In this document: piece after piece, positions 49,144-55,190 of the stretch | Layout of the letters: each line of letters begins with the position of its first letter | How positions within the stretch are numbered: position 1 is the stretch's first letter | Notes under the pieces: generated by a model | Seen by the model: only the letters and a program-made list of their open reading frames with translations | Told to the model about the DNA's origin: nothing | Database searches by the model: none | Made by a program: the position numbers and the translations under genes | DNA from: Leptolyngbya sp. SIO1E4 | GTDB taxonomy: Bacteria > Cyanobacteriota > Cyanobacteriia > Phormidesmidales > Phormidesmidaceae | Reading direction: 5' to 3' | NCBI GenBank assembly: GCA_010672825.2 | Contig: JAAHFU020000001.1 | Coordinates: 1,240,001 to 1,304,000 of the forward strand | DNA: 64,000 nt

Positions 49144-49769
49144 GTGAAGCAGGATATCCCACAGTTCAAAAACTTGTGTTTAACCGGGTTCGATATTGTC
49201 TGCAGCAAAGTAGGTAATCCCAAAGCGGCCCTGCCCCAAGACAGCCTCAATCGTGTATCTGCTGTTCTGTATTTGACTTCAATCTCACCGTTATGGATGC
49301 CTTTTCATCTGAGGGGGCTCGATGCGAGTTGGTTATTTTTCCCATTCTTCGAGAAATCTATAAGCGTTACACAGATGAGACTGCACTCTGGGTGCAAAAA
49401 TCATTTGCTGTCGATGCAAAGCTAAGCAGTACGCCAGACTACATGATTTCTCGCAAGCCTGAATTGGGCAAAACAATTTTGGAATCGCCTCTCTTACTAT
49501 TAGTTGAAACCAAGCGAAATGACTTTGAACAAGGCTGGGGGCAATGTCTTGCTGAACTCATTGCCCCCAGCCTTAATCATCATTCTCGCCCCGTTTATGG
49601 GATCGTGACTGATGGGAAATTGTGGGAGTTTGGACGGTTGCAGGATCAGGTATTTACAAAAAATGCAGCCAGCTACACCATTAGCAATTTAGAAACTTTA
49701 TTTTGCGTACTCAATGGCTTACTAGATCTAGCCACTCAAAATTTAGAGGTTCCAGCGCTGGCTGAGTAG
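49144..49769 (+). pseudogene. Frameshifted PD-(D/E)XK-like gene
   Basis: Two frames join into one protein. Frame one (GTG 49144) gives DIPQFKNLCLTGFDIVCSK and ...DSLNRVSAVL; then the reading must shift at about 49268-49275 to VFDFNLTVMDAFSSEGARCE and onward to 49769. A net loss of 3n+1 nt explains this. The second part has TPDYMISRKPELGKTILESP and VETKRNDFEQGWGQCLAELI, the D...ExK spacing of restriction-like nucleases. A shorter protein from ATG 49293 (158 residues) could still be made. The broken state could also be a sequencing error; the next gene is on the same strand but 136 nt away. Confidence 0.7.
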
Positions 49770-52900: not shown

Positions 52901-53202
52901 TTGGCCCACTGATTGGAACTCGCACCTGGGGGGGCGTCATTGGGATTTCACCCAGCCAGCGTCTGGTAGATCTGAGCATTGTTACTCAGCCCGAATATTC
53001 TTTCTGGTTTAAAGATGTGGGCTGGAAGGTAGAAAACTACGGCACCGATCCGGATATTGAAATAGACATCCCACCTCACGATTGGGCCCAAGGGAAAGAT
53101 CCCCAGCTAGACACCGCCATTCAAATCATTTTCAAGGAGCTAGCGCAGACCCCTGTCAAACTGCCGGAGTTTGGCGATCGCCCCCAGCTGCATTTGCCGT
53201 AA
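49906..53202 (+). CDS. Tricorn-type protease (S41 family with PDZ)
   Basis: 1098 residues. Propellers: about 1-320 six- or seven-bladed WD-like (SPDGSQLAFIGREEGNAEVY, SGWSPDGQSIIFVSNASEP) and a second to about 560, then an acidic/proline-rich linker (about 510-560). Core: DLKRVRISVLPQQEWQQMFR, a PDZ domain (AQGDSWTDQASPLRQIGLNM), and the S41 protease. Catalytic elements known from tricorn are visible: TSHAYEIGGDY (Ser-His) and NEHAGSDGDIF (nucleophile Ser). It degrades peptides produced by other proteases. No signal peptide, so cytosolic, as expected for tricorn. Confidence 0.93.
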   Translation: MTKQQSGYYRFPTIRGDRVVFVCEDDLWSVPVSGGVAMRLTANLGEVSHPALSPDGSQLAFIGREEGNAEVYVMPATGGNAKRLTFLGADTAVSGWSPDGQSIIFVSNASEPFPRLVQLYTISAEGGLPQRLPYGMAHTVSFGPQGKAVVGRNIADPARWKRYRGGRAGVLWVDATGTGQFEKLLDIQGNLASPMWIGDRIYFISDHEGIGNLYSCTPTGQDLQPLTEHREYYVRNAATDGQRIVYHAGAALFCIDVVSGAHHEIEIAFHSPQVQRQRKFIETGKYLEDYALHPDGHSTLITSRGQSVYFGNWEGAVTPLGQPGVGRYRLTNWLQDGIRVVTVCDRSGTETLEILSSDFDVAPIPLTGLDLGRATALKVSPVADQVVLSNHRHELIWVDLDSQQQRVLDHSPYNRIYGFNWSPDGQWVVYGCSEAQYTASIKLCRISDGETYRLTPPRFLDFAPTFDPQSKFIYFLSVREFNPVYDSVYFDLNFPKATRPFLISLQKETPSPFIPVPKPLADGNGKDPKAPSTSEPKSDGPGAESSSSTDNPPVQDDAVPPVTIEFEGIEQRVVGFPVPEGRYRQIWGIKDKVLFSSVPVKGSLGKNWFSTKPPAEAKIEIYDFTTHTCELVAKKVTDFKVAKDHRTLIYRSGDRLRVCAAKAQPTTRNSQGNGNAEANKPSRKTGWLDLKRVRISVLPQQEWQQMFREIWRLQQEHFWTPDLSGVDWERVYQRYRPLLDRVSTRSEFSDLVWEMQGELGTSHAYEIGGDYRKEPEYPLGFLGADFTYDAAVAAYRITHIAQGDSWTDQASPLRQIGLNMQVGDLLLAVDGQRLSQHVAPHERLVHQANCPVQLTVANREGQNRRTVTVKTLKNESRLRYREWVERNHQAVAEATEGRVGYVHIPDMGPAGYAEFHRYYFAEVHKQGLVVDVRFNRGGHVSQLILEKLARQRIGYDVPRWAQPEPYPFDSILGPIVAVTNEHAGSDGDIFSHCFKLMGIGPLIGTRTWGGVIGISPSQRLVDLSIVTQPEYSFWFKDVGWKVENYGTDPDIEIDIPPHDWAQGKDPQLDTAIQIIFKELAQTPVKLPEFGDRPQLHLP

Positions 53203-53209
53203 AATCCCA

Positions 53210-53563
53210 TCACGTCTGAAGTCGCAATCGCTGCCCTTGATATGCACTGGCATCAAAAACCTGCATGAGAGTCCCAAAGCCCTCTACTTCAGGGGTTTGG
53301 GCGCGAACCGTACCACTGGCGCTACCGCGATAGGCGAGGGTGAGATCGGCTCCCATGGCGTAGTCTTCGGGATGACTTCCGGCTTCAAGCCACTGTGATA
53401 AAGACACAAGTTCTGCAGCATTCGGCTGAGATGGACGGGTTTCTTGCGCGATCGCCCTTAAGCCCAGTGGGTTACTCAAGAAGTAGCTGCCCAGGGCAAC
53501 AGAGCCGATTAAACCTGATATCAGGAGTATGCCTGCTCGTGATTTAGACAGATGATGAAACAT
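53210..53563 (-). CDS. Exported protein, C-terminally truncated relative of a larger family
   Basis: From ATG 53563, with GGAGG nine bases ahead, it has 117 residues; an upstream in-frame ATG at 53623 is less likely. Signal peptide or anchor at about 8-30 (RAGILLISGLIGSVALGSYF). The rest (FVSLSQWLEAG-like LSQWLEAGSHPEDYAMGADL, EGFGTLMQVFDASAYQGQRL) follows the pattern of longer proteins in which this YxGxRxR strand continues, yet a stop falls after RLRLQT. The downstream 3' end overlaps nothing but sits 7 bp from the tricorn stop, so the missing part may have been deleted. Confidence 0.58.
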   Translation of the reverse strand: MFHHLSKSRAGILLISGLIGSVALGSYFLSNPLGLRAIAQETRPSQPNAAELVSLSQWLEAGSHPEDYAMGADLTLAYRGSASGTVRAQTPEVEGFGTLMQVFDASAYQGQRLRLQT

Positions 53564-53623
53564 GGCTTCAAACCTCCATACCGCTTTAAGCCTAGTGTGG
53601 GCTGTCGGGTAGGAAGCGACCAT

Positions 53624-53945
53624 ACAGGATCGCTACTTTAAGCGTTAATTTAAGGCTGCCCAAGAAAATCAGCCATCTGCAGCCCTCCTTATTGAGCAAG
53701 ATAATTTGACGCGATTTCCCTTCTACAGATAGCTGGATATATTACAAATTTTCTGTAGTACCTCTCATCAAACGAATAGGGATACCCGTACAGAAAAGAA
53801 GGAACAGCGCTAAAGTTCATGGAATTTGATAGGGATATGCAGAAAATGCGATCGCATTTTCTGCATATCCCTATCAAATTCACCCTAGAAAAGCTTAACG
53901 AGGCAAAAATGCCCCCTTTCAACCCCTCATTTCTAGGGAGTTCTT
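53624..53945. other. Divergent region with large palindrome
   Basis: 322 bp. Holds the 60-bp palindrome at 53822-53881 and the GGGAG ribosome site of the repeat protein at about 53935. The left half is AT-rich. Confidence 0.6.
53822..53881. repeat. Perfect 60-bp palindrome centred on HIP1
   Basis: 30-base arms with no mismatch and no spacer: GAATTTGATAGGGATATGCA... mirrored, with GCGATCGC at 53848-53855 as the centre. It stands 64 bp before the start of the seven-repeat protein. In RNA it gives one long hairpin; in DNA it can form a cruciform. Confidence 0.95.
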
Positions 53946-55190
53946 ATGAATACTCGCAAGTTCGTCAGCCATATCACCCTCGGTTTTGTAATGGCCACCT
54001 CGACTCTGTCGATTCCCACGCTGGTCAATGCAGCTCAAACCAGCCCCTTAGGCTTACATACGGATTCAACACCTACCCTTTCAGCCCCTCTGACCCCATC
54101 CGGCAATCTGCTCGCTGAGGCCGGAGCTGCGATTCTACGGCAGGGTGACAGCGGTCATCAGGCTGGAATCGTCTCTGACATTGCCACCACCTATTCCTAT
54201 AGCTATGGCCAAACTATTACCGCCGTTCGCACCGCTGCAGGCACCCTCAAACTCGTGGGCTGGCAAGTCAATGGCAACGGTTCTGTGACCCGCACGGGCG
54301 ATAGTGGCGACCAGGCTGGGCAAGCATCCCAGATTGATATTGCAGCCGGTCGCTTAATCGTGACGGCAGTTCGTGCTGCCAACGGTCACTTAAAACTTAT
54401 CAGTTGGTCAGTCGGTAGCGATGGCAACATCAACCGCCGTGGCGACAGTGGTGATCAGGCTGGAACAGCCAGTCTGGTGAAGATCATGCAGCTTCATTCA
54501 AATATCTTTGTGACCGCAGTCCGAACTACCGAAGGCAGACTCAAACTCATTAGCTGGCAACTGACGAGCGATGGTGCTCTCCATCGCTTAGACGATAGCG
54601 GCAATGAAGCAGGGGCTGTGAGTGAAATTGCCCTCTCCGGCGAAAGCATTAATAACCGGCGCCACATCATTACGTCCGTGCGCGACAGCCAGGGCAATCT
54701 CAAGTTAATTGCCTGGGAAGTGTCGCCTCGGGGTGTGATCACGCGCCGGGGTGACAGCGGCAATCAAGCTGGAAATGCCCGCATGGTTCAAGCCGCCAAG
54801 GCTGGGGAGTACACGGTTACTAGCGTTCAAACCGCCACGGGCGACTTAAAGCTGATTAGCTGGTTAATTTCTCAAAATCCTAATGGCAGCATTAACATTG
54901 CCCGTGTTGATGATAGTGGTGATCAGGCCGGCCAAATTCAGGGAAATGCCCTTCTGCAACGCCCTGATGGAGCGGTCTCTGCGGTGAGAACAGCATCGGG
55001 TGATCTCAAACTGATTCGCTGGCAGATCACCCACGCAGGGGCGATCGCCCGCACAGGAGACAGCGGTCATCAGGCAGAGAGGGCCACACTCATTAATATC
55101 AGCGCTAATCATAACGGGGGGCAGGCACCCATCATCACTGCCGTAAGAACGGCACAGAACACCCTCAAACTGATTACCTGGGATGATTAA
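53946..55190 (+). CDS. Secreted protein of seven ~50-residue repeats, possible beta-propeller
   Basis: 414 residues. Signal peptide 1-30 (KFVSHITLGFVMATSTLSIP..., cleavage near VNAAQ). Then seven repeats start at GDSG-like motifs 67, 118, 167, 216, 269, 322 and 371 (spacing 49-53). Each unit: R.GDSG.QAG, a variable part, ITAVRTA.G.LKLISW, then ..G.I.R. Ends LKLITWDD, completing the last unit, so seven full units are present, which fits a seven-bladed beta-propeller (inference). No enzyme motif. AGGGAG five bases before the ATG. Not recognised as a named family. Confidence 0.83.
   Translation: MNTRKFVSHITLGFVMATSTLSIPTLVNAAQTSPLGLHTDSTPTLSAPLTPSGNLLAEAGAAILRQGDSGHQAGIVSDIATTYSYSYGQTITAVRTAAGTLKLVGWQVNGNGSVTRTGDSGDQAGQASQIDIAAGRLIVTAVRAANGHLKLISWSVGSDGNINRRGDSGDQAGTASLVKIMQLHSNIFVTAVRTTEGRLKLISWQLTSDGALHRLDDSGNEAGAVSEIALSGESINNRRHIITSVRDSQGNLKLIAWEVSPRGVITRRGDSGNQAGNARMVQAAKAGEYTVTSVQTATGDLKLISWLISQNPNGSINIARVDDSGDQAGQIQGNALLQRPDGAVSAVRTASGDLKLIRWQITHAGAIARTGDSGHQAERATLINISANHNGGQAPIITAVRTAQNTLKLITWDD

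What the first reader, a model, noticed from the sequence alone, without database searches (positions are those of the whole stretch)
53822..53881. Perfect 60-bp palindrome centred on HIP1
Thirty-base arms are identical with no spacer. Such long perfect palindromes are unstable in most bacteria because SbcCD cuts the hairpin, so persistence suggests a function or a very recent origin. The centre is GCGATCGC, the most abundant octamer in this genome. It stands 64 bp before the secreted seven-repeat protein and near a truncated gene, so it could be a regulator, a terminator or the scar of an inverted duplication.
Basis: seen in the sequence. Interest (0 to 1): 0.72.

Follow-up and report, generated by a model that had tools for sequence, protein, structure and literature searches.

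The report
Perfect 60-bp hairpin palindrome before gene
A flawless 60-base mirror-image DNA stretch sits between two genes of a cyanobacterium; it is real and the longest of several dozen hairpin sequences found in the third of the genome examined, but its HIP1 centre is no more than expected and it most likely arose by a local DNA-copying slip rather than being a new kind of genetic element.

Summary
The palindrome at 53822-53881 is real, perfect (30+30, no spacer) and far beyond chance. It occurs once in the 8.2-Mb genome; no related DNA was found in 64 other same-family genomes, viral contigs or plasmids. It is not isolated in kind: 35% of the genome holds 21 zero-spacer perfect palindromes with arms of 14 or more; this is the longest (next 27). 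HIP1 is not a special centre: it is the core of 25% of palindromic octamers and of 25-36% of palindromes at every arm length. SbcC and SbcD are encoded; 60 bp is well below the 246-460 bp palindromes of the E. coli SbcCD work read here. It is not a usual terminator: no T-tract, divergent genes. The truncated neighbour is truncated at its far end. Upstream (53748-53797) lies an eroded quasi-hairpin related to the arms (p about 0.001-0.002), and the Shine-Dalgarno region can pair in a separate 9-bp helix. Best reading: a local inverted duplication made or perfected by replication template switching, now in the probable 5' leader of the 414-aa secreted repeat protein, where the RNA would fold at -45 kcal/mol. 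A regulatory role is possible, untested.

The parts
53822..53881 (.). perfect zero-spacer palindrome, 30-bp arms, HIP1 (GCGATCGC) centre at 53848-53855
   Evidence: unique in own genome; RNA fold -45 kcal/mol, DNA strand fold -30.1 kcal/mol
53748..53797 (.). eroded quasi-hairpin related to the arms in inside-out order (right-arm-like 53748-53772, left-arm-like 53776-53797; TTTTCTGTA/TACAGAAAA 9-bp ends)
   Evidence: p about 0.00125-0.0015 against GC-matched random genome segments; the motif pair occurs once in the genome
53883..53938 (+). possible leader hairpin CCCTAGAAA (53883-53891) / TTTCTAGGG (53930-53938) that would sequester the AGGGAG Shine-Dalgarno region
   Evidence: 8 of 916 leaders in this genome have a 9-bp perfect inverted repeat with its 3' arm within 16 nt of the ATG
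53946..55190 (+). 414-aa secreted repeat protein (signal-peptide-like N-terminus), all-beta repeats; gene downstream of the palindrome
   Evidence: AlphaFold model low confidence, all strands
53210..53623 (-). 137-aa ORF, N-terminal part of a 230-aa family, truncated at its 3' end; divergent neighbour of the palindrome

Best explanation
The palindrome is a locally made inverted duplication. During replication the growing strand switched template at a short palindromic core (here a HIP1 octamer, or an older imperfect hairpin around it), copied its own 20-odd bases backwards and returned, leaving two identical 30-bp arms; the same process can keep such arms identical. It now lies in the divergent intergenic region and probably in the 5' leader of the 414-aa secreted repeat protein, where the RNA would fold into a 28-bp stem with a 4-nt loop. 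Shown: perfection, uniqueness, excess over chance, HIP1 share as expected, related eroded hairpin next to it, absence of terminator signs. Inferred: template switching as origin, transcription through it, and any effect on mRNA stability or translation.
For: Single copy, no mobile family. Several dozen hairpins, 63 of 79 perfect, with a tail of long zero-spacer palindromes far above a Markov expectation, as expected where arms are made or corrected together; PMC8794818 describes template switching that creates and mends perfect hairpins, and PMC6060812 (citing van Noort 2003) notes that imperfect inverted repeats are rarer than perfect ones. The HIP1 share is about constant from arm 4 to 15 (0.25 to 0.36), so palindromes grow from cores in proportion to their abundance. 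Related eroded inverted pair 25-75 bp upstream; ours is among the 4 of 79 hairpins with p<0.01 for related sequence nearby.
Against: No close relative with the same intergenic region is held, so the state before the event was never seen. A single event does not explain the eroded upstream pair, which needs earlier events or selection for the motif. Perfection could also be kept by selection on an RNA or DNA structure.
Confidence: 0.6

Rival explanations
1. It is a functional 5'-leader hairpin of the 414-aa gene: the long stem next to the SD-sequestering helix shields the mRNA from nucleases or tunes translation.
For: 64 bp before the ATG in the coding direction; -45 kcal/mol stem; SD helix directly after it, and the leader with the palindrome cut out still folds at z -2.3; such SD helices occur in only 8 of 916 leaders. 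PMC6060812 finds E. coli inverted repeats enriched some 20-45 bp before start codons.
Against: No transcript data, no promoter match; only distant homologues of the gene are held, and the one upstream region read (L006) has no such hairpin; the SD helix alone is only p 0.05 by shuffles.
Confidence: 0.2
2. It is an operator or paired operator for a DNA-binding dimer controlling the two divergent genes, with the upstream TTTTCTGTA/TACAGAAAA dyad as second site.
For: Divergent position, four related half-sites, two in each orientation.
Against: The motifs occur nowhere else in the genome beyond the control level, so there is no sign of a regulon; operators rarely need 30-bp perfect arms.
Confidence: 0.08
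3. It is a transcription terminator (hairpin without U-tract) that stops read-through from upstream.
For: Cyanobacteria have no known Rho and some predicted terminators have no U-tract (PMC7406221); 33 of 79 hairpins in this genome lie between convergent genes and 36 of 79 have a T-rich tail.
Against: Ours has no T-tract (3 and 4 T of 8 on the two strands) and lies between divergent genes; the terminator scan finds none here.
Confidence: 0.07
4. It is an assembly or cloning artefact.
For: Perfect symmetry; reads not seen.
Against: Arms are only 30 bp, in the middle of a 2.7-Mb contig; many similar shorter palindromes occur across the genome.
Confidence: 0.05

Closest known systems
Template-switch / quasipalindrome-corrected hairpins (PMC8794818, PMC7202029)
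   Same: Perfect adjacent reverse-complement arms, single copy, no family, related imperfect hairpin nearby
   Different: The switch itself cannot be seen without a close relative; arms are the longest in the part of the genome read
HIP1 sites (GCGATCGC; PMC4390886)
   Same: HIP1 is the exact centre
   Different: HIP1 proper is 8-10 bp; the 26 outer base pairs on each side are not part of HIP1 and the whole arm occurs nowhere else
Rho-independent terminators of cyanobacteria (PMC3219970, PMC7406221)
   Same: Strong RNA hairpin between genes
   Different: No U-tract, divergent position, AT-rich outer stem
REP/REPIN (PMC3116915) and small dispersed repeats
   Same: Short palindromic intergenic DNA
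   Different: Single copy in its genome

Membership tests
Intrinsic terminator | stem-loop followed by a T-rich tract | tested here: not met
   3 and 4 T of 8 on the two strands
Intrinsic terminator | position at a gene end | tested here: not met
   between divergent ORFs, 199 bp and 65 bp from their starts
Dispersed palindromic repeat (REP/REPIN, SDR, MITE) | many related copies in the genome | tested here: not met
   one copy in 8.2 Mb
Extended HIP1 element | conserved bases well outside GCGATCGC shared between sites | tested here: not met
   best other match in the genome is 15 bp; commonest immediate flank pair holds 366 of 2,715 HIP1 sites
Template-switch inverted duplication | perfect adjacent arms beyond chance | tested here: met
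Template-switch inverted duplication | relative without the inverted copy at the same place | not testable with these tools
   no relative holds this intergenic region
Structured leader RNA | compensatory changes or conserved fold in relatives | not testable with these tools
   no homologous sequences; no Rfam family reaches its gathering score

The most novel reading that the evidence does not exclude
A regulated 5' leader in which a 30-bp perfect hairpin and an SD-sequestering helix act together on a secreted repeat protein, with arms kept identical by repeated template switching, so that mutation itself maintains an RNA structure.
Probability: 0.08. Interest if true: 0.6.

Novelty: new member of a known kind. 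Interest (0 to 1): 0.3.

Why it matters
The genome carries several dozen perfect hairpins far beyond chance, and HIP1 centres them only about in proportion to its abundance. This argues that short palindromic cores in general, not HIP1 as such, seed them. The longest one, in a genome that encodes SbcCD, shows that a 60-bp perfect palindrome can persist there.

Tried and rejected
Dispersed repeat or mobile element: rejected, single copy. HIP1 as a specific seed: rejected by the near-constant share. Link to the second-longest palindrome (C1:2132968, also HIP1-centred and in a divergent gap): arms unrelated, followed by a run of seven T, so probably a terminator. Regulon of the arm motif: none; C1:832401 has two partial matches, probably chance. 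Rfam: only sub-threshold models, mostly microRNA precursors, that score any long hairpin. Tandem repeat around the palindrome: none by TRF. A tandem-array reading of the upstream copies (period about 50) could be drawn by eye but only the inside-out pair is statistically supported. Synteny: relatives keep the tricorn-like protease but not the genes around the palindrome. The structure model of the 414-aa protein is of low confidence (mean pLDDT 48) and was not searched further.

Full report
Observation. The sequence at 53822-53881 is a perfect palindrome of 60 bp without spacer, centred on GCGATCGC. The next base on each side does not pair. In the window the next longest zero-spacer perfect palindrome has a 9-bp arm.

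Chance. I read 2.86 Mb (35%) of the same 8.2-Mb genome. Zero-spacer palindromes drop about 3.5-fold per added base up to about arm 8; then a flat tail begins: 35 with arm 11 or more, against none in a 5th-order Markov simulation of the same length. With spacers up to 12 there are 79 hairpins of score 14 or more, 63 of them perfect. Ours is the longest (30), then 27, 24 and 23. So the finding is the extreme member of a class. In 0.99 Mb of relatives and other bacteria fetched for other reasons, two hairpins reach the same score (30), both with a spacer.

HIP1. HIP1 forms 1,981 of 7,902 palindromic octamers (25%) in the first 2.06 Mb read. Its share of palindromes stays at 25-36% at every arm length from 4 to 15. 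The HIP1 centre is about what one expects if long palindromes grow from, or contain, a random palindromic octamer of this genome.

Uniqueness and relatives. The palindrome has no second copy in the genome. The intergenic region has no clear homologue in 64 other genomes of the family, in viral contigs (exact 28-mer) or plasmids. Only distant homologues of the downstream gene are held; relatives with the upstream protease (74% identity at best) do not have the genes around the palindrome. So 'do relatives keep it' cannot be answered.

SbcCD. The genome encodes SbcD (C8:66261-67040) and SbcC (C3:465234-468227), both over the curated cut-offs. In the E. coli SbcCD paper read here the palindromes were a 246-bp interrupted and a 460-bp perfect one (PMC4245961). 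A 60-bp palindrome is far shorter, so its persistence needs no special explanation, though E. coli is said to be poor in inverted repeats with arms of 13 or more (PMC6060812).

Context. 33 of the 79 hairpins lie between convergent genes (background 4.2%) and 36 have a T-rich tail on at least one strand, so many are probably terminators. Ours lies between divergent ORFs and has no T-tract. The 137-aa ORF on its left is the N-terminal part of a 230-aa family; its missing end faces the protease gene at 53202, away from the palindrome, so the truncation and the palindrome look like separate events.

Neighbouring related sequence. At 53748-53797 lies a quasi-hairpin whose two halves resemble the right and the left arm (order along the strand: right-like, left-like, left, right). 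Against GC-matched random genome segments this has p about 0.00125 to 0.0015; it was noticed after looking, so the p-value is optimistic. The TTTTCTGTA/TACAGAAAA pair at this spacing is unique in the genome. Of 79 hairpins, 11 have related sequence nearby at p<0.05 (about 4 expected), ours at p 0.007.

Leader. As RNA the palindrome folds at -45.0 kcal/mol. One base after it starts a 9-bp helix CCCTAGAAA/TTTCTAGGG that covers the AGGGAG Shine-Dalgarno region. A 9-bp helix ending near the start codon occurs in 8 of 916 leaders. By shuffles this helix alone is borderline (p 0.05). No sigma-70-like promoter was found.

Mechanism. The most likely origin is a local template switch at a short palindromic core, possibly on an older imperfect hairpin, of the kind described in PMC8794818 and PMC7202029. 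What is shown is the anatomy and the statistics; the event itself is inferred. A role in the mRNA leader is possible (about 20%), an operator (8%), a terminator (7%) or an artefact (5%) less so.

Verdict.

Noticed in passing
G000:C1:2132968-2133021 (L204:8968-9021): Second-longest perfect zero-spacer palindrome (27-bp arms), also HIP1-centred and in a divergent gap, followed 4 nt later by seven T: probably a terminator of a lost or unannotated gene.
   Followed up: partly
window 53210-53623 (-): 137-aa ORF truncated against a 230-aa family (50% identity to the ORF in L248), its lost end abutting the tricorn-like protease stop codon.
   Followed up: partly
window 53946-55190 (+): Secreted protein of about seven all-beta repeats with no Pfam match over cut-off; among the relatives searched, homologues were found only in one other genus of the family. 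Possibly a beta-propeller, model confidence low.
   Followed up: partly
G000:C1:290234, 324037, 447647, 476088, 647091, 1132606: Several short palindromes share a TAGGGRCAGC-like or GTAGAGACGC-like arm, possibly a small dispersed palindromic family of this genome.
   Followed up: no
window 49531-49574: 16-bp perfect inverted repeat with 12-nt loop inside or at the edge of an ORF before the tricorn-like protease gene.
   Followed up: no
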